Position numbers and translations under genes: made by a program. The notes below the pieces were generated by a model. That model was not told where the DNA came from, searched no databases, and saw only the letters and a program-made list of their open reading frames with translations. Below, in pieces: positions 820 through 19,506 of a stretch of DNA of 19,506 nucleotides. Positions within the stretch are counted from its first letter, which is position 1. Each line of letters opens with the position of its first letter. The DNA is from Candidatus Latescibacterota bacterium (GTDB lineage: Bacteria; Latescibacterota; UBA2968; UBA8231). The DNA is taken from the NCBI GenBank assembly GCA_021295675.1, contig JAGWBY010000113.1, positions 5,523 to 25,028 on the forward strand, written 5' to 3'.

Positions 820-2523
820 TCACACCTGCGGCCGCAAGTTTAGCAGCACCAAGAGCCAAGTGCGGCTCCAGTAGGCGCTGTTGATATAGGGGTTTTCCTC
901 ACTGGGCCAGTTGGTCCAATAGGTCTCGTTGTGTGGGATGCGGTGCGGCCATTGGACGATGGGGATGGAGGGCAGTTCGGCAAGCCAAAGGTCCATGGCC
1001 GGGGCGTCGGTCGGGGTCTGACCCATCTGGTCGATCAGCGCGTCGTAGGCCGGGTTTTGCCAGCGCCACGGCATGTCGGCTGGTTCGCCGGTGGGCTGGA
1101 CAAAGCGGCTGTGGTACTGGCGCAGCACAAAATAGGGGTCGCGCATGGAGCTGAAGTTGCCGATTAGGTACGCTCGGGCCGTGCCCTGGCGCAGGCGCGT
1201 GGTGAAGTCCGAGGTCATGCGGAAGGAGGCGTTGATGCCGGCCTTTTTGAGTTGCGCGATGAGCACCGGCGTCAAGTCCTGAAAGTGGGAGAAAATGTCG
1301 ATAACCATGCTCAGGGGTTGCCCGTCTTTTTCCCAGAAAACTCCGTTGCGTACGTAGCCTTTGCGGGCGAGTATCTCCGCGCTCTTTTCCAAGTCAAAGA
1401 CGCCGACTTGGTGTTTGGCGACCAAATCCTCGGAGAGAGTAAAATACCGATGCATCTGCGGCAGATCGGGCAAGGGCAGCAGAGTCCACGCACCTGAGTT
1501 TTGCCAGCCTATGGCTACGAGTTGTTCGCGGTCGATGGCGTAGTTGACCGCGCGGCGCATCTCTGGATCGGACCAAGGGGCCTCCAACCCATTGAACCCC
1601 AGTGAAATGGGCCACCAAGTGATGTAGCTGTACGGCGGCTCGCGGCCCGTCCAAGTCGTGATGTTGCGATTGCGCTCCAATAGGGAGACCATGTTGGCCG
1701 GCCGCAGCTCCAAGCAGGTGTCGATGTTGTTGGCGATCAGGTTTTGCACCCGCTTGTGCTCTTCCATGTAGGTCAGGTAGATCAGCCGCTCGACTTGGGG
1801 TAGCTTCTGAAAGCCGATTTTCTCAGCCCACCAGCCTTCGCGCAAATCCCAAATCCGCTGGGCCGGTTCTGAACGTACAATGCGATAGGGGCCGGTCAGC
1901 ACCGGCCAGCCTTTTTGCAGATCAAAGTTGGAAAAAGTCAGCGGGTCTTTGCCTTCCCAGATGTGCTTGGGCACAATGGGGACGCCTTGGTCGCCGCTGT
2001 GGACGAAGTAGCTGAAAAGGAAGCGCGGGTTGGGTGCCTTGAGCGCGATGCGCGCCGTCAAGCTGTCGAGGGCGACTGCCTCTTCGACCCAAGTCGCCAT
2101 ATCCGTCGAGTACATGAGCTGTGGGGCGTGCTCCACGAGCATGTTGACGGTAAAGGCAAAGTCGTGCGCTGACCAAGGATGCCCGTCGCTCCACTCGACG
2201 CCGGGACGAATTTTGACCACGAGTTCGGTGTAATCCTCGTTGAAATGGTGGCTCTCGGCGATCCAAGGTATTAGCTCGGAATCTTCCTCGTAGGCATTGA
2301 AGAAGTAAAGCGGCTCGTAGAGGAAATTATATCCTATCCGCGAGATGCCGCCTGGGATGAAGGGATTGAAGGAGTTGTAATCCTGGATCTGGCCAGAGCA
2401 GGTATTGGCCTCGGAGCAATCCATGATCAAGGTCCGGTTGCGCGGCACCTTTTTGAGGGCACCCTCGTCGCCACTACAGGCAATGAAGGGCAAGGTCGCT
2501 AAAAGCAGGATATAAATAGGCAT
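820..2523 (-). CDS. ABC transporter solute-binding lipoprotein, family 5 (SBP_bac_5)
   Basis: A 567-residue protein of the oligopeptide/nickel/glycoside-binding family 5. The N-terminus is hydrophobic and reaches a lipobox-like LPFIAC at Cys16, so it is probably a secreted lipoprotein. The n-region lacks Lys/Arg, and a stop codon lies directly before the ATG, so no longer start exists. Family features include a YNFLYEPL strand, VVKIRPGVEWSDGHPWSAHD, a LTGPYRI segment and a C-terminal hinge ending LAELPSIPIVQWPHR. No permease or ATPase genes are adjacent, so it is an orphan or serves a transporter encoded elsewhere. Around residues 505-512 the sequence TDAPAMDLWLAELP looks some 8-9 residues shorter than relatives I remember, a possible in-frame loss near 994. 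Ligand unknown. Confidence 0.88.
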   Translation of the reverse strand: MPIYILLLATLPFIACSGDEGALKKVPRNRTLIMDCSEANTCSGQIQDYNSFNPFIPGGISRIGYNFLYEPLYFFNAYEEDSELIPWIAESHHFNEDYTELVVKIRPGVEWSDGHPWSAHDFAFTVNMLVEHAPQLMYSTDMATWVEEAVALDSLTARIALKAPNPRFLFSYFVHSGDQGVPIVPKHIWEGKDPLTFSNFDLQKGWPVLTGPYRIVRSEPAQRIWDLREGWWAEKIGFQKLPQVERLIYLTYMEEHKRVQNLIANNIDTCLELRPANMVSLLERNRNITTWTGREPPYSYITWWPISLGFNGLEAPWSDPEMRRAVNYAIDREQLVAIGWQNSGAWTLLPLPDLPQMHRYFTLSEDLVAKHQVGVFDLEKSAEILARKGYVRNGVFWEKDGQPLSMVIDIFSHFQDLTPVLIAQLKKAGINASFRMTSDFTTRLRQGTARAYLIGNFSSMRDPYFVLRQYHSRFVQPTGEPADMPWRWQNPAYDALIDQMGQTPTDAPAMDLWLAELPSIPIVQWPHRIPHNETYWTNWPSEENPYINSAYWSRTWLLVLLNLRPQV

Positions 2524-4130: not shown

Positions 4131-5423
4131 TCAACCAGCCTCTGTCGGACTAGGTGGGACAAAGCGCTCCAGCCGCCAGCGCTTGGCCCACGTCTTTTCC
4201 AAGCGCACGCACAAGCACACGTCGTTGCCTTTGTAAGTTTCCGCGAGGACCTGGCCCTGCTGATGTAAATGGGCCAAGAGCCGGCCTTCGGCTTGGGGAA
4301 CCTGCAGCTCCAAGGTGATGTCTCCAGCGACGCTGTACGCGCGGATTTTGTCGCGCAGCGCGTCGAGGTTGATGGCTTGGCTAGCTGAGACGGCGATGGC
4401 ATCTTCGCGGTCTGCGTACGCGGCCGCGATCCGCTCTTCTTCGCCGGGGGCTACTTGGTCGATTTTGTTGTACACCCTCAGGGTGGGGCTGTCGGCAAGT
4501 CCGAGGTTGTGGAGGACTTGCTCGACCGTGGCGATTTGCGACTCGTAGTACGGAAAACTCAAGTCGATCACGTGGAGCAGCAAGTCGGCCTCCACGGCCT
4601 CTTCGAGCGTGGCGCGGAAAGAGGCAAACAGGTGATGGGGCAGGCGGTTGATGAAACCGACCGTGTCGGTGAGCAGGATCTTGTGGTTGCGGTCGAGGTC
4701 AACGGCGCGGGTGGTCGAGTCCAAGGTGGCAAAGAGCTGGTCTTCGACTAGCACATCCGCGCCGGAGAGCCTCTTCATCAAAGTGGACTTGCCAGCGTTG
4801 GTATAGCCCACGAGGGCCACCTTAAAAACATCCGCGCGATTTTTGCGGTTGGTCGCCATCTGCACGCCGATCTTGTCGAGCTTGGCCTCTAGGGAATTGA
4901 TCTGACGGCGAATCAGGCCGCCCGGGCCGCGGACGCCGGCTGCTCCCATGCCGCGGATGGCCCCTCCACCTGCTTGGCGCGACAGGTGGGTCCAGTAGCG
5001 AGTCAAACGCGGCAGGAGGTAGTTGAGCTGGGCTAACTCGACTTGGATCTGAGCCGTGTGGGTGCGAGCGTGGCGCGCGAAAATGTCCAAGATCACGGCG
5101 CTGCGGTCGATAATGCGGAGTTTGGTGATGCTCTCCAAGTTGCGCATCTGGGCTGGCGAGAGGTCGTTGTCAAAGACGATCACGTCGGCTTGACACTGGG
5201 CCGCAAGCTGCTTGAGAGAGGCGGCCTTGCCCTTGCCGACGTAGTGGGCCGGATCGATGCGGTCGCGCCCTTGGATCTGGCGCGCGGCTTCGACGAGGCC
5301 AGCGGTGGCGACTAAGCGGCCGAGTTCGTCGAGGGAGTGTTCGGCCTCCCAAGCGGGCATCTTGGGCAAGGCGACGCCGACGAGGATGGCCCGTTCTTGG
5401 TGCAGCGTGTGATTTGCTTCCAT
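4131..5423 (-). CDS. hflX: Ribosome-associated GTPase HflX (probable internal in-frame loss)
   Basis: HflX rescues or splits stalled ribosomes using ATP/GTP. The N-terminal domain has YVGKGK and VIVFDNDLSPAQMRNLE, then IIDRSAVILDIFA. The G domain has the P-loop GYTNAGKST (about residues 206-214), FATLDSTTR, the G3 motif DTVGF followed by INRLPHHL, and G4 as NKID. I chose the ATG at 5423 (430 aa), not the in-frame ATG at 5465: AGAAGG lies 4 nt upstream of 5423, and a TTGACA promoter element places 5465 inside the promoter. The linker reads RGPGGLIRRQI, whereas HflX proteins almost always have RGPGETQLE(T/V)D before the arginines. About 7-8 residues appear to be missing in frame near 4914-4925. 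Confidence 0.93.
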   Translation of the reverse strand: MEANHTLHQERAILVGVALPKMPAWEAEHSLDELGRLVATAGLVEAARQIQGRDRIDPAHYVGKGKAASLKQLAAQCQADVIVFDNDLSPAQMRNLESITKLRIIDRSAVILDIFARHARTHTAQIQVELAQLNYLLPRLTRYWTHLSRQAGGGAIRGMGAAGVRGPGGLIRRQINSLEAKLDKIGVQMATNRKNRADVFKVALVGYTNAGKSTLMKRLSGADVLVEDQLFATLDSTTRAVDLDRNHKILLTDTVGFINRLPHHLFASFRATLEEAVEADLLLHVIDLSFPYYESQIATVEQVLHNLGLADSPTLRVYNKIDQVAPGEEERIAAAYADREDAIAVSASQAINLDALRDKIRAYSVAGDITLELQVPQAEGRLLAHLHQQGQVLAETYKGNDVCLCVRLEKTWAKRWRLERFVPPSPTEAG

Positions 5424-5458
5424 TCGACCTTCTTTGGATTTGGTGGCGCAGCGCATCA

Positions 5459-5487
5459 AACACAAACAGAGCGCATCACTTTGTCAA
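5459..5487 (-). promoter_or_regulatory. Candidate hflX promoter
   Basis: On the minus strand a perfect sigma-70-type -35 TTGACA (5487-5482) is followed by a 17-nt spacer and a weak -10 TGTGTT (5464-5459, 3 of 6 consensus). Transcription would start about 25-30 nt before the ATG at 5423, and the element excludes the longer in-frame start at 5465. It is a pattern match only; the -10 is poor. Confidence 0.35.
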
Positions 5488-5534
5488 TACCGCAAGGACG
5501 AGTTTGCGCCTCCAATGCGCGGGCGAGCCGTTTG

Positions 5535-5551
5535 CGACAAGAGAATTGTCG
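5535..5551. repeat. Short hairpin in the hflX/kinase divergent region
   Basis: CGACAA (5535-5540) and TTGTCG (5546-5551) form a perfect 6-bp stem with the 5-nt loop GAGAA. A further CGACAA copy follows at 5565-5570. There is no adjacent T-run, so it is not a convincing terminator. It could be a protein-binding site or a leader hairpin; function unknown. Confidence 0.3.
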
Positions 5552-5628
5552 TTTGTAGGGACACCGACAATTTCGCCTTCACTACGGGCAAACGGGGAAA
5601 ATCGCGTGTCTCTAACTCGTCTTTATCC

Positions 5629-5657
5629 TTGACTTTTTGAAAAATTATTTGTGGTAT
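5629..5657 (+). promoter_or_regulatory. Candidate promoter of the histidine kinase gene
   Basis: TTGACT (5629-5634, 5 of 6 matches to the -35 consensus), a 17-nt AT-rich spacer, then TGGTAT (5652-5657, 3 of 6). TATTAC at 5655-5660 is an alternative -10 with a long spacer. The stretch is clearly more AT-rich than its surroundings and lies 50-80 nt before the kinase ATG. The location is plausible; the exact -10 is uncertain. Confidence 0.35.
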
Positions 5658-5670
5658 TACCCTATTGTTG

Positions 5671-5680
5671 CAAACGTTTG
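5671..5680. promoter_or_regulatory. Candidate LacI-family operator palindrome
   Basis: CAAACGTTTG is a perfect 10-bp palindrome centred on CG, the shape of many LacI/PurR-family operators (PurR boxes contain GCAAACGTTT). It lies just downstream of the candidate -10 for the kinase, a typical repressor position. The only LacI-family regulator in the window is at 7573-8607, beside gntK. A related 9-mer TTGTTGCAA occurs here (5665-5673) and before gntK (6933-6941). The link to that regulator is inference. Confidence 0.4.
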
Positions 5681-5706
5681 TTTGATGTCGAAACACGAGT
5701 CGTACC

Positions 5707-6930
5707 ATGGGCAAACACCGCGGCGGAAATGCTAACGAGGACTTGTTGCGCGACTTGCGGCTCGCGGTTTGGCGGCACAAAGAACCAGAGGGCGAATTCA
5801 TGATCCTAGCCCAGATCCGTCAGACCTTGGACCACGCTGGAGTCGCTTACGACGGCTGTCGGTTATACCGAGTGCACGCCGACAACGATGAGTGCACGAT
5901 GCGCGTCCATCCCTTGACAGCCGACGGGCATTGGTCCTCGCTAACCGAAGGACAGCAGTGGGTGCTGGGAGCGTGGAAATCAGCCGCGACCTGCTATCGA
6001 GCGCCGAGCCGCCACGGCGAATGTGCTTGGCTGGCCCAGCAGATGCGTTGCAATGTCAAAGCCATCCTCGAAACGACTTTTGATCAAGGCGTCCTAGCCG
6101 TTTATCGCAAAGAAGCCATCGCCTGTAGCGACGCGGACGTCGGCTTGTTCAAGGACTTAGGCGAAGTCCTTAGCGGGCTATACTACCGCCGAGAAGACCT
6201 AGCGCAGTTGCAGGTTAAAGAAGCGCAGCTACGCCAAGCGCAGAAATTGCGGGTGATGGGGCAATTGACGGCCGAGTTTGCGGGCGAAATTAACCAATAC
6301 TTAGAGGTGATCATCGGCGAGACCAGCTTGCTACGCGAAGGCGACTTAGCATCGGCAGTCGGCGAAGGCGTACAGGCCGTGTACGAGGCCAGCCTGCTGG
6401 CGCGCAGCACCAGCGAGCGGCTGTTGGCGTGTGCGCGCCAGCAGAAGGCCCGGAAGGACTGGGTCAACTTCACCCGCCTCTTGCAGGAAACAGCCCTGCT
6501 GATGCGCCGAACGCTCCTGACCGACCAGATCGAAATCGTCGAGGACCTAGCCCCGAATCTGCCCTATATCAAGGCTCATACCGGCCAGCTCCAACAGGTC
6601 GTCCTCAATCTCATCCAAAATAGCCGCGAAGCCATCAAGCAGGTGCGAGACGCAGGACGAATCGCGCTGCGGCTATCGACCCGCCAAGGCTGGATTGTAC
6701 TGGAAGTCGAGGACAACGGGCCGGGCATTCCCTCGGGAATGCGGGCCGATATTCTTGCGCCGTTCTTCACGACCAAGGCGTCGAGCCAGCACAGCGGATT
6801 GGGATTAAGCATATGCGCGGGCATTGCTCGCGAACACCACGGCCGCCTCTTCGTCAAAGACTGCGCCCAAGGGGCTTGTGTAGCCTTGGAACTACCCACC
6901 AATCCGCACGCCGCGTTAGTAAACAACTGA
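5707..6930 (+). CDS. GAF-domain histidine kinase homologue lacking the phospho-acceptor His
   Basis: A 407-residue cytoplasmic sensor-kinase homologue with no transmembrane segment. Residues ~1-160 form a GAF-like sensory domain (TFDQGVLAVYRKEA, then LFKDLGEVLSGLYYRREDL), followed by a short coiled coil (VKEAQLRQAQKL) into the dimerisation helix. The catalytic ATPase domain is complete: N-box with Asn301 and Asn305, G1 with Asp336 (EDNGPGIP), an F-box PFFTTK, and G2 GLGLS at 364-368. In the H-box MGQLTAEFAGEINQ the position normally held by His is Gly193 (codon GGC at 6283-6285). It could be a pseudokinase, phosphorylate elsewhere, or work as an ATPase switch. The ATG at 5707 was chosen as the first in frame after the promoter-like region. 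gntK follows after 66 nt on the same strand. Confidence 0.82.
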   Translation: MGKHRGGNANEDLLRDLRLAVWRHKEPEGEFMILAQIRQTLDHAGVAYDGCRLYRVHADNDECTMRVHPLTADGHWSSLTEGQQWVLGAWKSAATCYRAPSRHGECAWLAQQMRCNVKAILETTFDQGVLAVYRKEAIACSDADVGLFKDLGEVLSGLYYRREDLAQLQVKEAQLRQAQKLRVMGQLTAEFAGEINQYLEVIIGETSLLREGDLASAVGEGVQAVYEASLLARSTSERLLACARQQKARKDWVNFTRLLQETALLMRRTLLTDQIEIVEDLAPNLPYIKAHTGQLQQVVLNLIQNSREAIKQVRDAGRIALRLSTRQGWIVLEVEDNGPGIPSGMRADILAPFFTTKASSQHSGLGLSICAGIAREHHGRLFVKDCAQGACVALELPTNPHAALVNN

Positions 6931-8607: not shown

Positions 8608-8895
8608 GCGTTCGGGTTAAGGGATCTCTAATGGGTAGGTGCGATAAGACCAACCCGTCGAACCTTTGCCTATTGGACAAGTCGGTGCTAGTGCCTGCGC
8701 TGGGGTGTACATACGGCCAACAGCGCTGAGACAAGAAAAAAATTCAGTACAAAGGCTTTGGCAATGCTGTAGACGGAATTTTAGGTCGTGTATTCGTTTG
8801 AAACTTAGACGGGGCAACAAGCAAGCTCAGGTTGGCCAGTTGACCTAATTTAGATGGAATCGAACCGCTTAACGCGTTGCTAGACAGAGGCGGAG
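8608..8895. other. Intergenic region, 288 nt
   Basis: This stretch separates the start of the LacI-type gene from the end of the Mrp operon, both on the minus strand, so it should hold the regulator's promoter and the operon's end. I see no strong sigma-70 promoter and no G+C stem followed by a T-run. Small symmetric elements occur: GTTTGAAAC near 8796-8804 and AACGCGTT at 8871-8878, the latter centred on CG. No coding frame with family-like sequence was seen. Confidence 0.4.
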
Positions 8896-10561
8896 TCATC
8901 CCAAGTACACAAACAAGTATACTGCCAAGAAAATCGTCACCAACAACACGCTGCTACTGATAGGCCACGCCCTCGCAAAGACGCCTGTCGGGCCGTGGTA
9001 CTGGCGCACCTGATCTATTAAAGCGAAGACCTGTCGCTTGCTCCAAGCGATCAGTCCACCCCACAGCGGCGCACCCACCTGCACGCACAACCGCGCTGCG
9101 CCGGGTAGCAGCTTTCGGTAGGTCCAGTCCACGTCGATATTGGCCGAGCGCAGCTCCGGCGGGTAGATGCCCGTCAGCTTGAGCGCGACAAAGGCCAGCG
9201 CCGAAAAGAACAACAACTGGAGTTGTAAAACTATGTGGGTCGCATCGTACGGCTCGTAGGCAACCGGGTAGGGCAGGAGTCTATACAAATAGTGCGGGAA
9301 CGAACCGATACCAATGCACAGCGCCGCCCCAATCCCCATTGCCAAGAGCATGTTGCGCGGTGCTTCGCGGCAGCGGATCCCCGCGTCGTGAGCGAAGAAG
9401 GCAAAGAAGGGAATTTTAATGCCGGCGTGATGGAAGACGCCAGCCGAGGCAAACAGCAACAGCAGCCATACCACGAGGTGTCCCTCGTTGGCCGCGGCCT
9501 GCATGACCATGGACTTACTGACAAAGCCACTAAAGAGCGGAAAGGCCGAAATCGACGCGGCTCCGATCATGCAAAAGCCACAAGTCCACGGCATGGATTT
9601 GTACAGGCCCCCAAGATCCGAGCCGTTGATCCTGCCGGTGCGATAGAGCACCGCGCCCATCGACATAAAGAGCAAGCCCTTGAAGAGCACATCGTTAAAA
9701 GCGTGGGCCACCGCGCCGTTGACGCCCATGCCCGGCCCCAAGCCGACGCCTACTACCATAAAGCCGATCTGGTTGATCATGCTGTAGCCCAACACGCGGC
9801 GCAGATCGTTTTCAATCACCGCATAGAAGATGGGGAACATCGCCATGGCCGCGCCTATGTAGAGCAGGAGTTCGGTACCGGCAAAACTGCGCGCCAGCAC
9901 ATAGACCGCGGTCTTGGTCGTGAAGGAGCTTGGACTCTGGGTAGGCATCCACTAGCCACGAGTGCAGGAATGGGAAGGCGCATTTAATGCCAACGCCGAG
10001 GAAGATCAGCCGCGTGGCCCAGCTATCGATGCCCAGATGCCCCAGCGCCAGCGAGCCGGTCTGCTGGTAGTGCCACGCCGTGCCGACCAAGAGCAGCAAG
10101 CCCGAACTGATGTGGATCAGCAGATAGCGCGTACCCGCGGCAATGGCCCTTTCACTTCGGCTGGCCCAGATCTGGAAAACCGAGCTAATCGCCAACAGCT
10201 CCCAGAAGATGAAGAGCACAATGAGATCGCCGGCAAAGACCGCGCCTACGGCCGCGCCCGCGTACAGGAAGCCTGTAGCCTGTTGCAAGCGGTCGCGCAG
10301 GTGCAGCGAAAAGAGCGCGGCAAGGAAGGCGGCCACGTGAAAGAGATAGCCAAAGAGCAGGCTGAGCTGGTCAACGCGCACCCAGTGCAGCTCGTACCCG
10401 GCTAGGGAGCTGACCTGACCGTCGCCTATCTGGTAGCCGAGGAGATTATAAAATCCCGCCAACGGCAAAAGGAGCAACGCCACCCGCCGCACCGCCAGCG
10501 GCAAAACGGGCAACAGCAGCCCGCCTAACAGCAGGAAGGCCGCCGGGTGCAGGCTAGTCAT
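8896..10561 (-). pseudogene. Mrp antiporter NuoM/MrpD-like subunit D3, frameshifted
   Basis: This is the last gene of the Mrp operon, a proton-translocating antiporter subunit of the NuoL/M/N family. The first frame (start 10561) has WELLAISSVFQIWASRSERA and ends conserved sequence at GIKCAFPFLHSWLVDAYPE. The second frame resumes at SSFTTKTAVYVLA and continues through ENDLRRVLGYSMINQIGFM, SAFPLFSGFVSKS and FHHAGIKIPFFAFF to the stop at 8896. Relatives read DAYPEA-x-x-TGTVFL-SAFTTKTA, so about 7-8 residues plus frame (20 or 23 nt) are missing near 9931. Both flanks are well conserved and free of stops. The start overlaps the 86-aa gene by 8 nt. As written the product would be truncated after about 210 residues. 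Confidence 0.85.
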
Positions 10562-10814
10562 AGTAATCCTCGCGGCGCATCAGCACCTTGCGCATCTGAG
10601 TGGCCGTCAAAACCAATAGCACGCAGGCGACAAACCCGTATATCGCGTAAAAGCCGAACCATCCCTCAACCGGGAAGACGCCCTCGGCAAAGTTCAAGTG
10701 CCGATGGAAGATCAGTTCCAAACCCAAGAGCAAGGCGCAGAGAGCGAAGAAGACCCATATCAAGCGGTGGACGTTACGCGGCTGGTCGAATAGATGTTTT
10801 TTTTCTGAGTTCAT
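10554..10814 (-). CDS. Small membrane protein of the Mrp operon
   Basis: An 86-residue protein with a basic N-terminus (NSEKKHLFDQPRNVHR), two transmembrane helices (about residues 18-36 and 52-70) and a charged tail ending MRREDYYD. I recall similar short proteins with an EGWFGFYAIYGFVACVLLVL-like helix between antiporter subunit genes in Mrp/Mbh-like operons, so it is likely an accessory subunit. It starts 4 nt after the D2 stop codon and its end overlaps the D3 start by 8 nt, which indicates translational coupling. The ORF is intact. No enzymatic motif is visible. Confidence 0.75.
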   Translation of the reverse strand: MNSEKKHLFDQPRNVHRLIWVFFALCALLLGLELIFHRHLNFAEGVFPVEGWFGFYAIYGFVACVLLVLTATQMRKVLMRREDYYD

Positions 10815-10818
10815 GGCT

Positions 10819-12232
10819 TTATCCTCCGATCTGGCGGCAGAGGTCTAGGAGCGGGTCGGGATAGAAGAAGAGCACCAGCCCGCCCAGCGCCGTGCAAATC
10901 AGCGGCAGGACGCAGGCCAGTGGGGCTTCCTGTAGGCCGCTTTCTTCATCGGGTGCTGCGTAGAAAAAGGCGTTGACGGCCACTGGTAATAAATAGGCGA
11001 TGTTGAGCAGTGAACTTACCAAGAGTACGCCAATGGCCACGTACTGCTCGGCGTCCAACCCAGCGAGGATGAGGTACCACTTGCTCCAAGCGCCTCCCAG
11101 CGGCGGCAAGCCGATGATGCTCAGCGAGCCGACGAGAAAGGCCGGCCGATGCCCTTCATCTCGCTGATCTCGGTCTTGTGCAGGGCAACCGCGATGGCCC
11201 CGGCGCAGAAGAAGAGCGTGATCTTGCCGAAGGCGTGCATGGCAATGTGCAGGCTGCCGCCGAGAACGCCCCAACTATTGGCCAGAGCCGCGCCGAGGAC
11301 GATGTAGGAGAGCTGACTGACAGTGGAATACGCCAAGCGGGCCTTGAGGTTGTCCTTGGTCATCGCCACCAGCGAGCCAATGAGAATCGTGGCGCAGGCC
11401 GCGTAGGCCAGATACGTGCCCAAGCCCGTGTCGGCGAGCAGGTCGATGCCGAAGATATAGACGACGACCTTAAGGATAGTGAAGACGCCAGCTTTGACTA
11501 CGGCCACCGCGTGCAGCAGGGCGCTGACTGGAGCCGGAGCCACCATAGCGGCAGGGAGCCAGCGGTGGAAGGGCATCAGCGCGGCCTTGCCCGTACCGAA
11601 GGTATAGAGAAAAAGCAAGACGCCGATGGTCCATGTCGGGGCCTTGCCAGCGAGGATACCGCCGGAAACGAAGTCAAGAGTCCCAGCGATGTAGTAGGTG
11701 GCGACCAAGCCTGTGAGCAGGAAACCGATCGAGGTCGCAAGCAGGATGCCCAGATAGACGCGGCCCCCCGCTTTGGCTTCCGCGCTGCGGTGGTGAGTGA
11801 CCAGCGGATAGGTCGAAAGCGTCAGCGCCTCGTAGCAGAAAAACAGCGTCAGCATGTTGCCGGCGAATGCCGCGCCCAAGGCCGCGGCGATCGCCAAGGC
11901 GAAGAAGGCGAAGAAGCGAGTTTGATTTTCCTCGTGATGGCCCCGCATGTAGCCGATGGAATAAGCCCCGCGGCGATCAGCGCAAAGAGCGCGCCGAGCG
12001 GCTCGACTTCAAAGGCCAAGGACAGACCTGGAAAAACCTCCACCAGATGCACCGACGGCCGGGCACCTGCGGCGACTTTGGGCACCAACGTGCAGACCGA
12101 GGCAAAAGTGCCTAGCCCGGCGAGCAGAGTCGCGGTCTCGCGCAAATTGGGACGGCGACCTAAAAGAGCAATCACCGGCGCGGCACCCAAAGGCAGGAGC
12201 ACAGCCGCGACAATGGCAGTCGAAGCACTCAT
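10819..12232 (-). pseudogene. Mrp antiporter NuoL/MrpA-like subunit D2, two frameshifts
   Basis: The family antiporter core is spread over three frames. Frame 1 starts at ATG 12232 (overlapping the D1 stop as ATGA) and runs to EPLGALFALIAAGL. Frame 2 resumes at YSIGYMRGHHEENQTRFFA and carries YEALTLSTYPLVTHH, LMPFHRWLPAAMVAP and PVSALLHAVAVVKAG, the typical channel segment with its lysine, up to EISEMKGIGR. Frame 3 resumes at AFLVGSLSIIGLPPLGGAWSKWYL and ends at 10819. Expected linkers such as WIVTSL (near 11964) and RMPLTMA (near 11143) are absent, implying losses of about 19-22 nt at each break. Everything outside the two junctions is conserved. The PVSALLH motif makes this the closest to MrpA/NuoL among the three large subunits. 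Confidence 0.85.
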
Positions 12233-13648
12233 GGCGCAATTCCCAAGAGCCAGTGCGCTGCCTTGTGGGCAACCCCAGCCGTCAGCGAGGTCTGCATCCC
12301 GAAACCAATGGTAAGCGCAATGAGCAGCCATACGGGGATCTGCATCGAGAGGGGGGCTTCGGCGATAGGCTCGGCATCTTCGGGTACCGGGCGGAAATAG
12401 GCGATTTCGACAAAGCGCCAGATATAGACCAGCGCCAGCAGTGAGCTTATCACCACCAGTGCGGCGACCGGCCACCAACCGCGCTCCAGCGCGCCCAAAA
12501 TCAAGTACCACTTGCTGATAAAGCCCACGGTAAACGGCACGCCGACTAGCCCCAAGCCAGCGAGGACAAAGGCGCACGAAGTCAGCGGCAGACGCTTGCC
12601 CAGCCCGCTGAGATCAGCCAATTGCACGGAGTTGATGCGGAGGAAGATGCAGCCAGCGGCCAAGAAGAGCGCCGCCTTCATCAGCGCGTGATTGAACAGG
12701 TGGACGATGCCAGCAGTCAGCCCAGTGGCCGATCCTAAGCTAACGCCGAGCATCACATAGCCGATCTGCGCCACGCTCGAATAGGCCAACAGCCGCTTGA
12801 GATCGGTCTGGTAGACCCAAGAGCACCAGCGGCAAGAGCAGGACATCGAGGTGCATGGTGCCAAAGGCGAAGTCCGCGCCAAAAATCGCGAAGACAAAGC
12901 GCAGGAAGGCGTACGCGGCAACCTTAGTCGCGGTTGCCGAGATGAAGGCAGTAACGGCCGAAGGCGCGTACGTGTAGGCGTTGGGCAACCAGATATGCAG
13001 CGGGAAAAGTGCCATCTTGAGGGTGAAGCCAACGCTTATAAAGGCAAAGGCCACGTGGATGGTGCGGGTATCGGCGACAGCTTTGATGCGCATGGCGAGA
13101 TCGGCCATGTTGAGCGTGCCGGTCATCGCGTACATCAGGCCGATGCCGATCAGGATAAAGGTCGCGCCAATCGTGCCCAAGATCAGGTAGTTATACGTCG
13201 CCATAAGGGCGCGGCGATCCCGGCCAAGACTAATCAGCCCATACGCCGAAAGCGACGAGATCTCCATAAACACGAAGACGTTAAAGGCGTCGCCGGTAAT
13301 GGCAATGCCCAGCAAGCCAGCCAGACAAAGCAGAAAGATCGCGCAGAAATACGGGCGGCGCTCTGCCTCGACTTCGCGCGCCGCACTCGCCGGTGCATAG
13401 GTCAGGACCACGGCCCCGATCAGCGCCACCAGTAAAATCAAATACGCATTGAGAGCATCTACTCGGAACTCGATGCCCCAAGGTGCGCTCCAGCCGCCCA
13501 ACGCGTAGGAGATGGGGCCGTCGGAGAGGACTTGCTGCAACAGTAGTACGGCCAGCGCCAGCGTACCCCAGCCGACGACCACGACAAACGGCCATAGCAA
13601 GTACCGCGGACGCAGCAATAGGCAGAGCGGCGCAGCGACCAGCGGCAA
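12229..13648 (-). pseudogene. mrpD: Mrp antiporter subunit MrpD-like (D1), frameshifted
   Basis: Frame 1 carries GDAFNVFVFMEISSLSAYGL, RALMATYNYLILGTIGATF, FPLHIWLPNAYTYAPSAV and TATKVAAY, reaching DVLLLPLVLLG. The second frame resumes at VYQTDLKRLLAYSSVAQIGY and continues with VHLFNHALMKAALFL, VPFTVGFISKWYLIL and the C-terminus to 12229. Relatives have a short hydrophobic stretch like AMFVGSLVA between the two, so about 20-26 nt are missing near 12816. Start is uncertain. TTG at 13648 is the first in-frame candidate, but a GTG at 13668 overlaps the mrpC stop (GTGA) in a neighbouring frame and would be the expected coupled start, which hints at a further small change near the N-terminus. Confidence 0.85.
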
Positions 13649-13664
13649 GACGATCTGGCGGCGA

Positions 13665-14021
13665 TCACGACCCCTCTTCCCGGCGTTGGATTTCGTCTTC
13701 TTCGATGGTCCCGTAGGCCGCGCGGATGCGCACCACCAGCGCCAACCCCACGGCGGTAGTGGCGATGCCTACTACAATGGCGGTGAGGATGAGAACGTGG
13801 GGCAATGGGTTGGAGTACGCCCTCACGCCTTCGGCGAGGATGGGCGCGGTCCCCCCCTCGACTTTGCCCATGCTGATGTAGAGCAAAAAGACCGAGGTTT
13901 GGAAAATATTGAGGCCGATCAGTTTCCGAATCAGGTTGCCGCGGGCGATGACATTGTAGAAGCCGGCCATCATCAGGAAAATGACGATCCAGTAGTTGTA
14001 CAGACCGAGGAACGAACTCAT
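13665..14021 (-). CDS. mrpC: Mrp antiporter subunit MrpC (NuoK-like)
   Basis: A 118-residue membrane protein with three helices, homologous to NuoK. Signature stretches are GFYNVIARGNLIRKLIGLNI, FQTSVFLLYISMGKV, and the highly conserved YSNPLPHVLILTAIVVGIA followed by TTAVGLALVVRIR; the tail YGTIEEDEI is also family-like. It forms part of the membrane proton/cation pathway of the Mrp complex. Its ATG at 14021 overlaps the MrpB stop codon (ATGA), and it is complete, one of the few intact genes of the operon. Length matches the family. Confidence 0.93.
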   Translation of the reverse strand: MSSFLGLYNYWIVIFLMMAGFYNVIARGNLIRKLIGLNIFQTSVFLLYISMGKVEGGTAPILAEGVRAYSNPLPHVLILTAIVVGIATTAVGLALVVRIRAAYGTIEEDEIQRREEGS

Positions 14022-14974
14022 GGCCGCTCCCGACCGCTGATTACGACAGCGGCCACGGTAATGCCAACCCCTAGCTCAATCAGCAGAATGCCATAGTGCT
14101 CGCCGTGGGTAGGATCGCTGGCCAACACCTTGTATTCGAGGAAATTGCCCCCGGCCAACAGGCAGGCCAAGCCCGTGCCGATGTAGAGCAGAAGCCCTAA
14201 GGCAAAAAAGACTTGGACGCGGCCAGCAGGGGCCACCCGGCGCGCCTCCTCGACCCCGTAGATCAGGGCGTACAAAATAAAGGCCGCGGCAAAGATCACG
14301 CCCGCTTGGAACCCGCCACCCGGACCAAAGTCGCCGTGGAACTGCACGTAGAGTCCAAAGAGCAAAATCAGCGGGATGAAGAGCTTGGAGGCGACGCGGA
14401 GGATCATCGCGTGTCGCATTGCTTGGTCGGCGGCCGCATCCAGTCTAGTGCCGCTGCCGCGCAACAGCAACAACACTGCTAGCCCAGCGGTGAAGATCAC
14501 CGTCACCTCGCCCAAGGTGTCGTAGCCCCGGTAGCTGGCCAACACGGAGGTGACCATGTTGGGAATGCCAATTTCCTCGGGGGACTCGGCGATATAGCGA
14601 GGAGCCACGTGCTGGTGGACCGGAGCGTTGGGGTCGCCCAAATGCGGCATATCCAGCGTGCCATAGATAAGCGCACCGCCGGTCAGGAGGCAGACGCAGA
14701 GGCCGCTCCAAGAGTGTTGGGGTTGGGTCTTTTCTCTAGGCCCGGTCAAGGTGAGCGCGGCCAAGAAGAGCACCGTTGCCAAGCCGGCACCCACCGCCGC
14801 TTCGGTGAAAGCCACATCGACTGCATCGAGCGAGGTAAAGATACAGGCCGAGAGCAAGCTGAAGATGCCGGTGAGCACTACCGCGGCAAAAAGGTCCCGC
14901 ACCTGGATAATAGCCACGGCGATAATGGCGAGGAACGTCATCAACACGACGTCGATGTCAATTAGCGCAGTCAC
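14018..14974 (-). CDS. mrpB: DUF4040/MbhE-like plus MrpB fused antiporter subunit
   Basis: A 318-residue membrane protein. Residues ~1-80 match the DUF4040 (MbhD-like) C-terminal part of MrpA (VVLTGIFSLLSACIFTSLDA, then DVAFTEAAVGAG). The middle (GIPNMVTSVLASYRGYDTLG) is MbhE-like. The C-terminal half is MrpB: VASKLFIPLILLFGLYVQFH, GDFGPGGGFQAGVIFAAAF and GEHYGILLIELGVGITVAA. MrpA is thus split, its tail fused to MrpB and its antiporter core coded separately (D2), an Mbh-like plan. The GTG start at 14974 overlaps the mrpG stop as GTGA. The end, AAVVISGRERP, lacks the hydrophobic IFYAF-like residues I expect, a possible in-frame loss of about 6-7 residues near 14035. Confidence 0.9.
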   Translation of the reverse strand: MTALIDIDVVLMTFLAIIAVAIIQVRDLFAAVVLTGIFSLLSACIFTSLDAVDVAFTEAAVGAGLATVLFLAALTLTGPREKTQPQHSWSGLCVCLLTGGALIYGTLDMPHLGDPNAPVHQHVAPRYIAESPEEIGIPNMVTSVLASYRGYDTLGEVTVIFTAGLAVLLLLRGSGTRLDAAADQAMRHAMILRVASKLFIPLILLFGLYVQFHGDFGPGGGFQAGVIFAAAFILYALIYGVEEARRVAPAGRVQVFFALGLLLYIGTGLACLLAGGNFLEYKVLASDPTHGEHYGILLIELGVGITVAAVVISGRERP

Positions 14975-15285
14975 TGTTCCTCCGGGGTGCCTTGGGGTAC
15001 AAGCCCACTGTGCCGCGCCGCGCGGGCGATGGCGTGGGTGGCGACGGGGCTAGCCAGCAATAAGAACAGCGCGATCATCACCAGCTTGACGGTCGCCAGC
15101 GACAGGCCACTCTGGAACATAAGCCCCAACAAGATCAAACCCGCGCCCAGTGTATCGGTAACGCCGCCGCCGTGCATGCGGCTGTAGAAGTCGGGCAAGC
15201 GCAGGAGACCCAAGCCGCCGACGAAGCAAAAGCCAGCCCCCAACAGCAGACAGGCCCAGCTAGCGTAGTAGAGTAGGGCTTCCAT
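14971..15285 (-). CDS. mrpG: Mrp antiporter subunit MrpG
   Basis: A 104-residue membrane protein with three helices. The diagnostic MrpG/PhaG segment is GLLRLPDFYSRMHGGGVTDT followed by LGAGLILLGLM; the last helix is VKLVMIALFLLLASPVATHA, ending AIARAA. It is a structural subunit of the Mrp complex. The ATG at 15285 overlaps the mrpF stop as TGATG, and its own stop overlaps the next start. It is complete and of normal length. Confidence 0.93.
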   Translation of the reverse strand: MEALLYYASWACLLLGAGFCFVGGLGLLRLPDFYSRMHGGGVTDTLGAGLILLGLMFQSGLSLATVKLVMIALFLLLASPVATHAIARAARHSGLVPQGTPEEQ

Positions 15286-15528
15286 CAGGCTTGAGCTTCC
15301 TCCTCACCAACGGTCGAGACGTACTTGAGGATGGCGATGGTGCCGATGAAGTTGATTAGCGCATAGACCAGCCCCAAGTCGAGAAAGTCGGGGCGGCCGG
15401 TCAAAAAGCCGATGACCGATAACAGCAACACGGTCTTGGTGCCAAACATATTGACGGCGAGCACGCGATCGTCGCACTAAGGCCAGCAGCATGGTGGCCA
15501 GTACCCCGATCATTGCAGCGGCGAACAC
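15285..15528 (-). pseudogene. mrpF: Mrp antiporter subunit MrpF, frameshifted
   Basis: From the GTG at 15528, which overlaps the mrpE stop by one base, frame 1 reads FAAAMIGVLATMLLALVR. The second frame then gives DDRVLAVNMFGTKTVLLLS, VIGFLTGRPDFLDLGLVYA and LINFIGTIAILKY, ending EEEAQA with a TGA at 15285-15287 that overlaps the mrpG start. Family members have a GPTV-containing loop (for example ALLGPTV) between the helix-1 arginine and DRVLAVN; it is absent, so about 20 or 23 nt are missing near 15474. Both halves are clearly MrpF, a three-helix subunit with the conserved DR in the second helix region. As written only a non-functional peptide with an out-of-frame tail would be made. Confidence 0.85.
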
Positions 15529-15988
15529 TAGCTCTCCCCTTCCATGTCGGTCACGCGGCGGTCCATGCCCCCAGAGCGCACGTCTTCAGCAGCTTCGCGG
15601 GTCAGGGCGTGGACATCAATGATACCTTCGTCGGTCTCAACGGAGACCGTGCCCGGCGTCAGCGTGATCGAGTTGGCGTAAATGACTTGTCCCAAGTGAG
15701 TCTTCTGGCTTGCCTCGACTCGGATTAAGCGGGGCGACAGCGGCATCCGAGGATGCACGATCCGCCGCACCACATCGAGATTGGATTTGACTATTGCCCA
15801 CAAGAACCAAGGCATATAGCGCAGCAAGCCGGGGATCAGGTGGATAGGATGCCCTTCGGGATCGACGATCTTCATGCGGCGGCAGAGCCGAAGCCCAAGA
15901 GCAGGCCCGTATAAATGCCCGACAAAAGCAGCCAACTCAAAAACAGCAGGACGAAAAGACTGAGCGTTCTGCGCAGCGCGTTTGACAA
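15528..15988 (-). pseudogene. mrpE: Mrp antiporter subunit MrpE, frameshifted
   Basis: The C-terminal part is unmistakable MrpE: RRMKIVDPEGHPIHLIPGL, YMPWFLWAIVKSNLDVVRRI, and TLTPGTVSVETDEGIIDVHAL. The true N-terminus lies in another frame: a TTG start at 15988 with GAGG 7 nt upstream gives LSNALRRTLSLFV, LLFLSWLLLSGIYTGLLLGF and GSA, the expected first helices. A TTG at 16001 opens a continuous frame into the C-terminal part, but its first 40 residues (for example VKRAAQNAQSFRPAV) are hydrophilic and unlike MrpE, so I reject it. Relatives have a VVWLA-like stretch before RRM; about 19-25 nt are missing near 15882. It is the first gene of the Mrp operon. Confidence 0.82.
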
Positions 15989-16110
15989 AATAAGTCCTCA
16001 ATTCTCCTTGCTAATGAACGGACATAATTTCTGCATTTGCAGGTTTGGATGCAAACTGCTTTGGCGGCGACCAGTAGCCAATTTCAGAGGCGTTTATCGC
16101 CTCGACCTGC
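15989..16110. other. Intergenic region upstream of mrpE with two inverted repeats
   Basis: This 122-nt gap separates the methyltransferase end from mrpE, both on the minus strand. GAGGCG (16087-16092) and CGCCTC (16098-16103) form a perfect 6-bp stem with loop TTTAT a few bases after the methyltransferase stop, a possible weak terminator without a T-run. CTGCA-TT-TGCAG (16031-16042) and TTTGCA/TGCAAA (16036-16041 and 16050-16055) are further overlapping symmetries in the presumed mrpE promoter area. I cannot fix a -35/-10 pair. Confidence 0.35.
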
Positions 16111-16905
16111 TCAACGATCGACGACCCAGTACGTCGTCCCGATCTCTTTTGCACCTGCGTACGGCTGGCCGTCGTGGGTGCCAAAAAGCTGCCAGCGGCT
16201 AAATCCTGCTAGGCGCAGCAATAGCTGAAATTCTTCTTTGTAGATCCACCGCGCCGTCATGGACTCTACCGCTGTTTCTCCGGCGTAAGTAAAAAACCAC
16301 TGGTAGTGCTCAGTCTGCTCGCCCAGATCGACGATCTTTTTGAACCGGACGCTGATTCGTCGGCCTGTTTCGGGGTGAGTGAATTCGCCAAATTCCTCCA
16401 GCGACGGGGACGGCCTGACGTGAGCCAGCAGATCGTCGGCAAGCGACGGAATGTAGAAGTTCATCAGCAACCGCCCGCCAGGCACCAGATGGGCGCGGAT
16501 GCGTTCGAGACAGGCGATTTGGGCTGCTTGGCTGGGCAAGAGCATGAACGAACTGGCCGGAATCAGGATGGCCGCAAAGGACTGGTCGTAGCAGAAGTCA
16601 ACCATGTCCTGACAGCAGACGCGGCGATCGATATCGTCCAGCCCCAAATCCGCTGCCTTGCGCCGCAAAACGGCCAGCATCCCTGCGGCGCAATCGAAAC
16701 CCCTGATGTCAACGCCTTGGCGCAAAAGACGGAGTAGAATCGAACCAGTGCCGCAAGCCGCTTCGAGGACCGGACCTGCCTCTCCGGCGAGCTGCATGCT
16801 GTAGAATTGGAACTCGTGCTCGTGCGTCTGCTGTCTGTCGCCCCGCTCGTTCCACTGGTCATATATCAGCGGCCACCAGGGATTGTCGTAATTGGCGTCA
16901 GTCAC
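16111..16905 (-). CDS. Class I SAM-dependent methyltransferase
   Basis: A 264-residue protein with the Rossmann methyltransferase motif I VLEAACGTGSILLRLL (from residue 46), strand-2 acidic position in IRGFDCAAGML, and motif-IV-like FAAILIPASSFMLL, followed by HLVPGGRLLMNFY (post-motif). The C-terminal half is a beta-rich domain with YQWFFTYAGETAVESM and GFSRWQLFG, resembling small-molecule methyltransferases rather than rRNA enzymes. The GTG at 16905, with GGAGGG 9 nt upstream, starts VTDANYDNPWWPLIYDQW; the longer frame back to 17055 covers the intergenic promoter and is not family-like. It is divergent from the PhyH pair and may belong to the same pathway; substrate unknown. Confidence 0.8.
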   Translation of the reverse strand: MTDANYDNPWWPLIYDQWNERGDRQQTHEHEFQFYSMQLAGEAGPVLEAACGTGSILLRLLRQGVDIRGFDCAAGMLAVLRRKAADLGLDDIDRRVCCQDMVDFCYDQSFAAILIPASSFMLLPSQAAQIACLERIRAHLVPGGRLLMNFYIPSLADDLLAHVRPSPSLEEFGEFTHPETGRRISVRFKKIVDLGEQTEHYQWFFTYAGETAVESMTARWIYKEEFQLLLRLAGFSRWQLFGTHDGQPYAGAKEIGTTYWVVDR

Positions 16906-17053
16906 AAGTGCAGGCCCTCCCTTTGGGTGCGTCCCAGTCGGCTGCTTGCCCCATCGTCCGGCAAGGAGCAATTTCTTGCTTTGCGTACCAACCGCCAGCG
17001 CACATTCAAATAAAGAGATGATAGGCAGCAATACCAGCAAAGGGAAACACATC
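16906..17053. promoter_or_regulatory. Divergent promoter region between methyltransferase and PhyH genes
   Basis: These 148 nt lie between divergent starts (GTG at 16905, ATG at 17054) and must hold both promoters if the genes are transcribed locally. AGGG stands 9 nt before the PhyH ATG and GGAGGG 9 nt before the methyltransferase GTG. I could not identify confident -35/-10 pairs or a clear LysR-type T-N11-A box, though the LysR gene downstream is an obvious candidate regulator. Confidence 0.35.
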
Positions 17054-17797
17054 ATGGACGCTCAACAGCAGTACCTCTTCGACCTGCAGGGCTACATCGT
17101 ACTCAAGGGCGTCGTGCCCGCAGCGGTGGTCGCCGCCTGCAATCAGGTTCTGGATCGCTTCGAGACTATGGACGAGGCCGATTACCCACCGCCGCTGTGT
17201 TTGGGCGACCAGCGCACGCAGCAGAACCTCTATATTTCAAACATTCTCGAAGGGGACGAAGTCCTCCGCGCGTTGATCGATATTCCCGCGGTCCTAGACG
17301 TCGTCGCCGCAGTCACCGGGGGGCCGTACCGACTCAATCACACCTATACCATCTATCGCTGGGGCGGCGGCTACACCGGCCTGCACATGCACGGCACGCC
17401 CATCATTCCCAAGTGTCAATATCACTGCCGCAACGGGCAGATGGTCTCGACCCTGACCAAGGCGGTCTTTCCCCTGCTCGACTGCGCCGAGCAAGACGGC
17501 TGTTTCGCCGTGATCCCCGGCGCTCATAAAAGCAACTTCCCTAGGCCCTGGGGCAATCACCCAGACGAAAATCCAGCGCTACAAGCAGTGCCGGCCGCCG
17601 CCGGGGACGCCATCATCTTTACTGAGGCATTGACCCACGGCTCGCTAGTCAATACTTCCGGTCGCCCGCGCCGGACCCTATATTATTGCTACAGTATAGG
17701 ATACATGCCCGACTGGGGCGGACAGCACCTGCGCTTCAGCAGCGAAATCTACGAGGCATTGCCCGAGCAACAACGCGAAATACTCAGGCTAAAATGA
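17054..17797 (+). CDS. Phytanoyl-CoA dioxygenase family protein (PhyH 1)
   Basis: A 247-residue protein of the PhyH clan of Fe(II)/2-oxoglutarate oxygenases (jelly roll). It opens with YLFDLQGYIVLKGVV and has GCFAVIPGAHKSNFPRPW, typical of bacterial PhyH proteins. His195 (EALTHGS) and Arg206/207 fit the distal Fe ligand and 2-oxoglutarate-binding arginine. The expected HxD proximal motif falls at His111-Met-His113 (LHMHGTP), so no acidic residue is seen there; relatives I recall have LHGG at this place. The ATG at 17054 was chosen over the upstream frame because it has AGGG 9 nt before it and family similarity starts there. PhyH 2 begins 13 nt after its stop, suggesting one transcript. Substrate unknown. 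Confidence 0.85.
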   Translation: MDAQQQYLFDLQGYIVLKGVVPAAVVAACNQVLDRFETMDEADYPPPLCLGDQRTQQNLYISNILEGDEVLRALIDIPAVLDVVAAVTGGPYRLNHTYTIYRWGGGYTGLHMHGTPIIPKCQYHCRNGQMVSTLTKAVFPLLDCAEQDGCFAVIPGAHKSNFPRPWGNHPDENPALQAVPAAAGDAIIFTEALTHGSLVNTSGRPRRTLYYCYSIGYMPDWGGQHLRFSSEIYEALPEQQREILRLK

Positions 17798-17810
17798 CGG
17801 AGAAATGTCC

Positions 17811-18686
17811 ATGCTAACTCAAGAACAAATCGCCAGCTACCACGAAAAAGGCTACCTCGGCGTCGAGGGAGTACTAGACGCCGGAGAGGTCGAGGCGCTG
17901 CGGCAGACCACCGACGAATTCGTCGAGCAGTCGCGCGCCGCGACCGAAAGCGATAGCGTATTCGACTTGGAGCCGGGGCACGCGCCCGACAACCCCAAGC
18001 TACGACGGCTCAAAAGCCCAGTCGCCCAGCACGAAATCTACCGCAGCACGCTGCACCACGAGCGGATTGTGGACATCGTCGCCGAGTTAATCGGCCCGCG
18101 CATCCGCACCAACGGCGACAAGCTCAACATGAAATCCGGCGAGTTCGGTAGCCCGGTGGAGTGGCATCAGGACTGGGCTTTTTATCCGCACACCAACGAC
18201 GACCTGCTCGCCGTGGGCGTGTGCATCGACGATATGAACGAGGCCAACGGCTGCTTGCTCGTCATCCCAGGGTCGCACAAGGGACCGATCTATAACCACC
18301 ACCTCGACGGCCATTTCGCCGGCGCAGTGACCACAACGGATTTCGACGACTCCACCGCTGAAAAGATCGAGCTAAAAGCCGGCGGCATCTCCATCCACCA
18401 CGTCCGCGCCCTGCACGCCTCCCTGCCCAACACCTCGCCCCATCCGCGCCGACTCCTGCTCTTGCAGTATTGCGCTGGTGACTCTTGGCCCTTGGTACCA
18501 GCGCCCGACTGGGAGGGCTATTGCCGCAGCTTCGTGCGCGGCGAGCCAAGCCGGCACATCCGCGTCGCCGACGTGCCCGTGAGCATGCCGATGCCCGGCG
18601 CCAAGGTCGGCGGCTCCATCTACGCTACCCAGACCGTATTGCGCCACTCGACCTTCGGATCGGCGAAAGCTGCGCAGCCCACCTAG
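17811..18686 (+). CDS. Phytanoyl-CoA dioxygenase family protein (PhyH 2)
   Basis: A 291-residue Fe(II)/2-oxoglutarate-dependent oxygenase. It begins LTQEQIASYHEKGYLGVEGV and has a complete metal site: WHQDW with His119 and Asp121, the distal His202 in ALHASLPN, and Arg213/214 in HPRRLLLLQY for 2-oxoglutarate. GCLLVIPGSHKG is the usual PhyH segment. Two ATGs are close together; 17811 has GGAG at the ideal 8-nt spacing, while 17805 would leave 2 nt. Bacterial PhyH enzymes hydroxylate varied small molecules or lipids; the substrate cannot be predicted. The sequence is only distantly similar to PhyH 1, so they probably catalyse different steps rather than being a recent duplicate. Confidence 0.9.
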   Translation: MLTQEQIASYHEKGYLGVEGVLDAGEVEALRQTTDEFVEQSRAATESDSVFDLEPGHAPDNPKLRRLKSPVAQHEIYRSTLHHERIVDIVAELIGPRIRTNGDKLNMKSGEFGSPVEWHQDWAFYPHTNDDLLAVGVCIDDMNEANGCLLVIPGSHKGPIYNHHLDGHFAGAVTTTDFDDSTAEKIELKAGGISIHHVRALHASLPNTSPHPRRLLLLQYCAGDSWPLVPAPDWEGYCRSFVRGEPSRHIRVADVPVSMPMPGAKVGGSIYATQTVLRHSTFGSAKAAQPT

Positions 18687-18696
18687 CGCTGCGCCC

Positions 18697-19506
18697 ATGA
18701 ACCTGCAACACCTGCGCTACTTCCTCGCCGTGGCGCGCACGGGCGGCTTTACCCCAGCGGCGCGCCAGATGAACGTGACCCAGCCGACGGTTTCCAGCGC
18801 GGTCTTGGAGCTGGAGAAGAGCATGGGGGTCCAGCTCTTCAACCGCGACAATCGGCACGTGGCCCTTACTACCGAGGGCCGCCTGCTACTGAGCTATGCC
18901 GTCCAAGTCGAGGACTTGCTAGAGGAGGCGAGCGAGCGGCTGCAGCGGAGCGACTTAGAGCCGGGAGGGGGCTTTCAGTTTGGGGCGGTAGATGCGGCCG
19001 TTATCTACCTCCTGCCGGAAATTCTCAAAGAGTACATGCGCCGCTATCCGGGCGTCGCGCTCAAGACGCAAGTCGCTCCTTCGCGTTACCTCATCGACGA
19101 TCTGCTAATGCAGCGCTCTGAATTCGCGCTGATCCACCTGCCCTATACCCATCCCAGAATCGACGCCGTGCCGATTTACCGCGACGACATGCCCTTGGTC
19201 GTCGGGCCAGCGCATCGCTTTGTCCAGTGCGAGTCTGTTGCCCTCGCCGAAGTGGTGGATCCTCTTTCACGCCGACTCGATTTCGCGCAAGGTGATTGAC
19301 GAGAAGCTCGCCGAAGCTGGCCTAACGCCGGGCGCGGTGATGGAACTGCGCAGTCCAGAGGCCATGCGCAAGTTGGTGGAGGCCGGCGTGGGCATTTCGT
19401 TTTTGCCGCGGCTGACCATCCGCGAGTCGCTGGCGAGCGGCGCGCTCAAAACAGTAGAAGTGCGCGGCGTGGCCTTTGAGCGCGAAATCGGCGTGGCTTG
19501 GCGGCG
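18697..19506 (+). pseudogene. LysR-type transcriptional regulator, frameshifted and cut by window edge
   Basis: The N-terminal winged helix-turn-helix is clear: MNLQHLRYFLAVARTGGFT, AARQMNVTQPTVSSAVLELE and FNRDNRHVALTTEG. The effector domain follows up to ESVALAEVV in frame 1. The next frame resumes at ILFHADSISRKVIDEKLAEA and continues with MELRSPEAMRKLVEAGVGIS and FLPRLTIRESLASGALK to the right edge. Relatives have only a few residues (like GQPF) between LAEV and ILF, so about 11-14 nt are missing near 19258. If the intact gene is real it would regulate the PhyH pair and perhaps the divergent methyltransferase; it starts 10 nt after the PhyH 2 stop on the same strand. Confidence 0.83.

What the first reader, a model, noticed from the sequence alone, without database searches (positions are those of the whole stretch)
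8896..19506. A recurrent lesion: short losses at one or two conserved spots per gene
At least seven frameshifts occur: MrpE, MrpF, D1, D2 (twice), D3 and LysR. Each is accompanied by the absence of a short conserved stretch. HflX, MrpB and the binding lipoprotein seem to have in-frame versions. The frame shifts require at least three different lengths modulo 3, so one fixed-length loss is excluded. There are no stray stops or single-base indels elsewhere, which argues against slow decay and for one mechanism. The simplest is technical: stripped ambiguous bases or scaffold gaps, or trimmed contig joins. A real burst of microdeletions would be remarkable.
Basis: partly seen in the sequence, partly recalled or inferred. 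Interest (0 to 1): 0.7.

Follow-up and report, generated by a model that had tools for sequence, protein, structure and literature searches.

The report
Assembly gaps mimicking broken genes
This stretch of bacterial DNA is missing eleven short pieces that its relatives carry, which makes healthy-looking genes appear broken; the pattern points to faulty joining of sequence fragments by software rather than to real mutations in the bacterium.

Summary
The lesions are real features of the string, but most likely not of the organism, a Candidatus Latescibacterota. Against eleven relative rows (perhaps ten genomes; 7-11 cover each site) the window lacks eleven stretches of 11-28 bases (24, 24, 23, 22, 19, 26, 16, 18, 23, 28, 11), of the same net length in every covering row except distant G009 at two sites. 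Eight shift the frame (MrpE, MrpF, LysR, MrpD-like 1, MrpD-like 2 twice, MrpD-like 3 twice); three are in frame (HflX, MrpB, solute-binding protein). Relatives mostly have these genes open. The broken genes show nearly the codon-position pattern of intact ones and no internal stops in the relative's frame. Lengths are peaked (mean 21, sd 5) and frame-blind; junctions lack microhomology or hairpin signal. Two fragmented relatives have contigs ending at two of the sites, one pair with a 55-base overlap spanning the lost 26 bases. Its claim that the lost pieces are conserved does not: conservation is average. Which program step removed them is unresolved; trimmed contig ends joined without filling fits the lengths. 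Source reads would settle it.

The parts
998..999 (.). Junction: 24 bases absent, in frame, in the solute-binding protein gene (820-2523, -)
   Evidence: 24 extra bases in 9 of 10 covering rows (G009 shows none within 8 bases); PF00496
4918..4919 (.). Junction: 24 bases absent, in frame, in hflX (4131-5465, -); 8 residues fewer than in all nine homologues aligned beside the window and P0001
   Evidence: 9 of 9 covering rows; alignment; a contig of relative G003 ends 24 bases away
9930..9931 (.). Junction: 23 bases absent, frameshift in MrpD-like gene 1 (8896-10561, -)
   Evidence: 11 of 11 rows; one open frame covers 63% of the G001 protein in the window, 100% in 9 of 11 relative rows, 98% in G006, 53% in G009
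11140..11141 (.). Junction: 22 bases absent, frameshift in MrpD-like gene 2 (10819-12232, -)
   Evidence: 11 of 11 rows (in two pieces in G006 and G009)
11963..11964 (.). Junction: 19 bases absent, second frameshift in MrpD-like gene 2
   Evidence: 11 of 11 rows
12815..12816 (.). Junction: 26 bases absent, frameshift in MrpD-like gene 3 (12229-13668, -)
   Evidence: 10 of 10 covering rows; two contigs of relative G010 end here with an exact 55-base overlap around the lost stretch
13656..13657 (.).
   Evidence: 9 of 10 covering rows (G009 differs); gene place
14034..14035 (.). Junction: 18 bases absent, in frame, C-terminal part of MrpB (14018-14974, -)
   Evidence: 9 of 10 covering rows at 18; G007 21 minus 3, net 18
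15472..15473 (.). Junction: 23 bases absent, frameshift in MrpF (15282-15530, -)
   Evidence: 11 of 11 rows
15886..15887 (.). Junction: 28 bases absent, frameshift in MrpE (15528-15990, -)
   Evidence: 9 of 10 covering rows at 28; G006 30 minus 2, net 28
19257..19258 (.). Junction: 11 bases absent, frameshift in the LysR-type regulator (18697-19506, +)
   Evidence: 7 of 7 covering rows

Best explanation
The eleven losses are artefacts of sequence assembly. Contigs of an intact Latescibacterota genome were joined end to end with 11-28 bases missing at each join, either because contig ends were trimmed and the gap closed without filling, or because short gap runs were dropped before gene calling. 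The organism itself most likely carries intact mrp, hflX, lysR and solute-binding protein genes. Shown: the losses are private to this sequence, frame-blind, narrowly sized and without visible decay. Inferred: the joining step itself, and the intact state of the real genome.
For: Same net missing length in every covering relative row except G009 at two sites, at 77-92% identity. Frames of D1, D2, D3, MrpF and LysR are broken only here, apart from G010 D3 (contig break) and G009 D1. In the broken genes, third-position share of changes 0.719 and nonsynonymous share of changed codons 0.252 against G001, versus 0.722/0.240, 0.734/0.231 and 0.748/0.218 for G008, G011, G002; only terminal stops in the G001 frame. 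8 of 11 lengths are not multiples of 3 and their CV is 0.23, far below an exponential (p 2e-5). Microhomology 0.91 against 0.73 bases by chance; folding energy at background (p 0.56). G010 contigs C8 and C508 end at junction 12815 with an exact 55-base overlap holding the lost stretch, and a G003 contig ends 24 bases from junction 4918. The closest database proteins other than the window's own are full-length: HflX P0002, 433 aa, and MrpD-like P0121, 562 aa.
Against: No reads and no copy of the window's own assembly were available, so no junction was tested directly. There is no N in the window, and the database holds the shortened HflX as contiguous sequence. The contig-end coincidence is 2 of the 6 end events I placed in two genomes, noticed after the fact. 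Private substitutions are not enriched within 10-50 bases of the junctions, so the flanks show no sign of poor contig ends. The nonsynonymous share in the window's broken genes (0.252) is the highest of the four compared and above its own intact genes (0.199); G002, G008 and G011 differ in the same direction by less (0.218/0.188, 0.240/0.236, 0.231/0.225), and I did not test the difference. The program step is unidentified.
Confidence: 0.93

Rival explanations
1. Real, very recent burst of microdeletions: an error-prone repair event or mutator state removed 11-28 bases at many sites in one lineage, too recently for decay to show.
For: The shortened HflX is contiguous in the database. End-joining repair can delete a few bases without microhomology (established knowledge), and junction microhomology is near chance level.
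Against: Eleven hits in the 16.9 kb comparable with G001, in genes on both strands and of unrelated function; no accompanying private small losses found in the scan; private substitution rate 0.0167, within the 0.0076-0.0423 of 8 relatives; lengths peaked, not spread.
Confidence: 0.03
2. Ordinary pseudogene decay of the mrp operon under relaxed selection.
For: Five genes of the operon, and lysR, have broken frames.
Against: Codon-position and nonsynonymous shares close to those of intact relatives; only terminal stops in the relative's frame; no private single-base losses found; hflX and the solute-binding protein gene are hit as well.
Confidence: 0.01
3. Technical variant: gaps at coverage drop-outs caused by the local sequence (hairpins, G+C), with the short gap runs removed later.
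For: Short losses; the corresponding G001 stretches have 0.50-0.70 G+C.
Against: Mean folding energy at the sites equals background (-9.1 against -9.2, p 0.56). Random drop-outs should give a wide, exponential-like spread of lengths.
Confidence: 0.03

Closest known systems
Trimming of contig edges at scaffold gaps, as in GapFiller (PMC3446322; passages seen)
   Same: By default 10 bases are cut from each side of a gap before filling; near-abutting contigs joined after such a cut would lack about 20 bases, as here (mean 21, range 11-28).
   Different: GapFiller, by the passages seen, closes a gap only with an overlap and an agreeing size; here the flanks meet without overlap. Nothing shows that this program was used.
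Contig ends at shared k-mers in de Bruijn graph assemblies (SPAdes-type; recalled)
   Same: In G003 and G010 three contig pairs overlap by exactly 55 bases, one of them around junction 12815.
   Different: Such contigs overlap, whereas the window lacks sequence. Exact matches to relatives beside the junctions are only weakly longer than chance (one of five measures at p 0.03).
Mrp (CPA3) multisubunit cation/proton antiporter operon
   Same: G001 frames match subunit B, C, E, F, G and three D-type models; the window is collinear with G001 here.
   Different: In the window D1, D2, D3, MrpF and MrpE are broken.

Membership tests
Assembly artefact (short loss at contig joins) | Losses private to one assembly, absent from close relatives | tested here: met
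Assembly artefact (short loss at contig joins) | Blind to reading frame and to gene function | tested here: met
   8 of 11 lengths not multiples of 3; genes of unrelated function on both strands
Assembly artefact (short loss at contig joins) | Junctions fall where assemblies break | tested here: inconclusive
   2 of 6 placed contig-end events in G003 and G010 lie within 25 bases of a junction; post hoc; the far end of G010 C118 was not placed
Assembly artefact (short loss at contig joins) | Source reads contain the missing bases | not testable with these tools
   own assembly not held; no reads
Pseudogene decay | Relaxed constraint in broken genes | tested here: not met
   shares close to three intact relatives; nonsynonymous share slightly the highest (0.252 against 0.218-0.240), difference not tested
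Pseudogene decay | Mixed spectrum of single-base indels and stops | tested here: not met
Microhomology-mediated or slippage deletion | Short direct repeats at the ends of the lost stretch | tested here: not met
   mean 0.91 bases against 0.73 by chance, maximum 3, judged with the G001 bases
Mrp (CPA3) antiporter operon | Adjacent genes for the Mrp subunits | tested here: met
   on G001 frames, several matches below the curated cut-offs; window collinear

The most novel reading that the evidence does not exclude
A Latescibacterota lineage has undergone a real, very recent, frame-blind burst of 11-28 base deletions without microhomology, hitting transport, GTPase and regulatory genes alike, as if a nuclease or end-joining system cut out pieces of about two helical turns.
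Probability: 0.03. Interest if true: 0.7.

Novelty: not a real feature. Interest (0 to 1): 0.08.

Why it matters
It matters mainly as a caution. Claims of gene loss built on this contig, such as a broken Mrp antiporter or an HflX without a conserved motif, would be wrong. The signature found here (the same missing lengths against all near relatives, peaked near 20 bases, frame-blind, no relaxed selection) is a simple test for the same fault in other metagenome contigs. If real instead, it would be an unfamiliar mutational process.

Tried and rejected
Losses at the most conserved DNA: not supported. Hairpins and microhomology: no signal. Exact-match runs to 8 relatives beside the junctions: one of five measures (largest two-sided minimum) at p 0.03, the others 0.08-0.38; not relied on. 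The longest exact run through the site among relatives was below the random mean (81 against 180, p 0.83); that measure is dominated by near-identical pairs and was not used. Poor sequence near junctions: no excess of private substitutions. Dropped before the count of eleven: 60 bases at 11768 (G001 alone) and the 4094/4112 differences (lengths vary among relatives). Relatives cut at contig ends are 'na' and left out of the k of n. The MrpD-like protein search did not list the window's own protein, presumably folded into a 90% cluster. Papers: two searches for this artefact gave no paper with the terms asked for; one listed GapFiller (passages seen). One search listed 12 of 16 papers on sponge Latescibacterota; of PMC12993501 I saw passages only. 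The idea that the lost length is 20 plus a true gap of -9 to +8 is arithmetic on the lengths, not a test.

Full report
The window encodes, on the minus strand, a family 5 solute-binding protein, a xylose-isomerase-like protein, a SAM methyltransferase, HflX, a LacI-type regulator, an mrp antiporter operon and a second methyltransferase; on the plus strand a histidine-kinase-like protein, a small AAA/kinase-like protein, two PhyH-type dioxygenases and a LysR-type regulator (the second dioxygenase and LysR are named from NCBIfam matches below the curated cut-offs, LysR on the G001 frame). Its own assembly is not held. The nearest genome, G001, is a single contig of 6,265,692 bases, collinear with the window except for three larger differences (5496-6908, 8635-8886, 16054-17028). 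That these are sponge symbionts is recalled and fits the papers listed; it was not tested.

Alignment to G001 and then to eleven relative rows (G004 and L045 have identical letters at the sites shown and may be one genome) gave eleven losses: 24, 24, 23, 22, 19, 26, 16, 18, 23, 28 and 11 bases after 998, 4918, 9930, 11140, 11963, 12815, 13656, 14034, 15472, 15886 and 19257. Of the covering rows, 9 of 10, 9 of 9, 11 of 11, 11 of 11, 11 of 11, 10 of 10, 9 of 10, 10 of 10 (net), 11 of 11, 10 of 10 (net) and 7 of 7 agree. The exceptions, at 998 and 13656, are both G009, one of the two distant genomes (78% identity). A reverse scan found one private gain of 6 bases. Two differences were dropped: 60 bases at 11768 (G001 alone) and the 4094/4112 stretch (length varies among relatives).

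In the window one open frame covers 63, 58, 55, 69 and 61% of the G001 D1, D2, D3, MrpF and LysR proteins, and 86% of MrpE (at 70% identity). In the eleven relative rows it covers 95-100% of these five, except G010 D3 (42%, contig break), G009 D1 (53%) and G007 LysR (not in the loci held). MrpE coverage is 80-100% in the relatives too, so by this measure MrpE is a weak example, though its 28-base loss is clear. HflX and MrpB are cut in G003 (43 and 17%) and MrpB in G010 (35%); both genomes have contig ends within this region.

The broken genes show no clear decay. In the G001 frame 71.9% of window changes fall at third positions and 25.2% of changed codons are nonsynonymous; G008, G011 and G002 give 72.2/24.0, 73.4/23.1 and 74.8/21.8%. 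The window's nonsynonymous share is the highest of the four and above its own intact genes (19.9%); the difference was not tested. Every stop of the window in the G001 frame of 12 genes is the terminal codon; G008 has one extra stop at the last residue of MrpG. The window's private substitution rate, 266 of 15,896 (1.67%), lies within the 0.76-4.23% of eight relatives.

The losses look mechanical. Eight of 11 lengths are not multiples of three. They cluster at 21.3 with sd 4.9; an exponential spread is unlikely (p 2e-5; p 0.0036 after shifting by the minimum). Microhomology judged with G001 bases is 0.91 against 0.73 by chance, and folding energy is at background. The lost stretches are as conserved as random ones (0.898 against 0.900, p 0.62; with 25-base flanks 0.915, p 0.19). 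Eight of 11 fall in 9.9-15.9 kb; this clustering was seen after the fact and not tested. In the control, eight relatives have 7 private coding losses of 8 bases or more between them, at most 3 in one genome, and 21 private out-of-frame runs, mostly short and not all checked; the window has 11 of 11-28 bases.

Other assemblies break at two of the sites. G010 contigs C8 and C508 share exactly 55 bases at their ends, and the 26 bases lost in the window at 12815 lie inside that overlap. A G003 contig ends 24 bases from junction 4918. Four other end events that I placed in these two genomes, at about 3683-3737, 4492, 8780 and 14114-14168, do not coincide with a junction; the far end of G010 C118 was not placed. 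This is suggestive only.

Where was the sequence lost? The protein database lists a 430-residue HflX, identical to the window across the shortened junction and without X, on a contig of 25,028 bases. The loss was therefore already contiguous when that protein was called. One process that gives about 20 missing bases is the cutting of 10 bases from each side of a gap, the GapFiller default (PMC3446322, passages seen). Whether this or any similar program was used is unknown.

Noticed in passing
8816-8893; G001 L021:7646-12982: A 26-residue leucine-rich-repeat-like fragment stands in the window where G001 has two leucine-rich-repeat genes (402 and 1359 aa, 72-base units); L042 (the G008 region) has only 21 bases between the flanks, so this looks like natural gene gain or loss.
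   Followed up: partly
5496-6908: A 407-residue histidine-kinase-like gene is present in the window and matched in L046, but G001 has only a few bases here.
   Followed up: no
16054-17028: A methyltransferase gene (16111-17055, -) is missing at this place in G001 and G008 but matched in G011 and G004.
   Followed up: no
11768 (window): G001 alone of the eleven rows carries 60 extra bases, a multiple of three, in the second MrpD-like gene.
   Followed up: no
P0009 (database protein): A metagenomic HflX with a short stretch of unrelated residues and one extra residue in the GTPase domain, as from two compensating frameshifts, perhaps sequencing errors.
   Followed up: no
8896-13668: The operon has three MrpD/NuoN-type subunits, and none of the G001 frames scanned has an MrpA model as its best match; D1 matches NF009310 above its cut-off, D2 and D3 match subunit D models below cut-off.
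   Followed up: no
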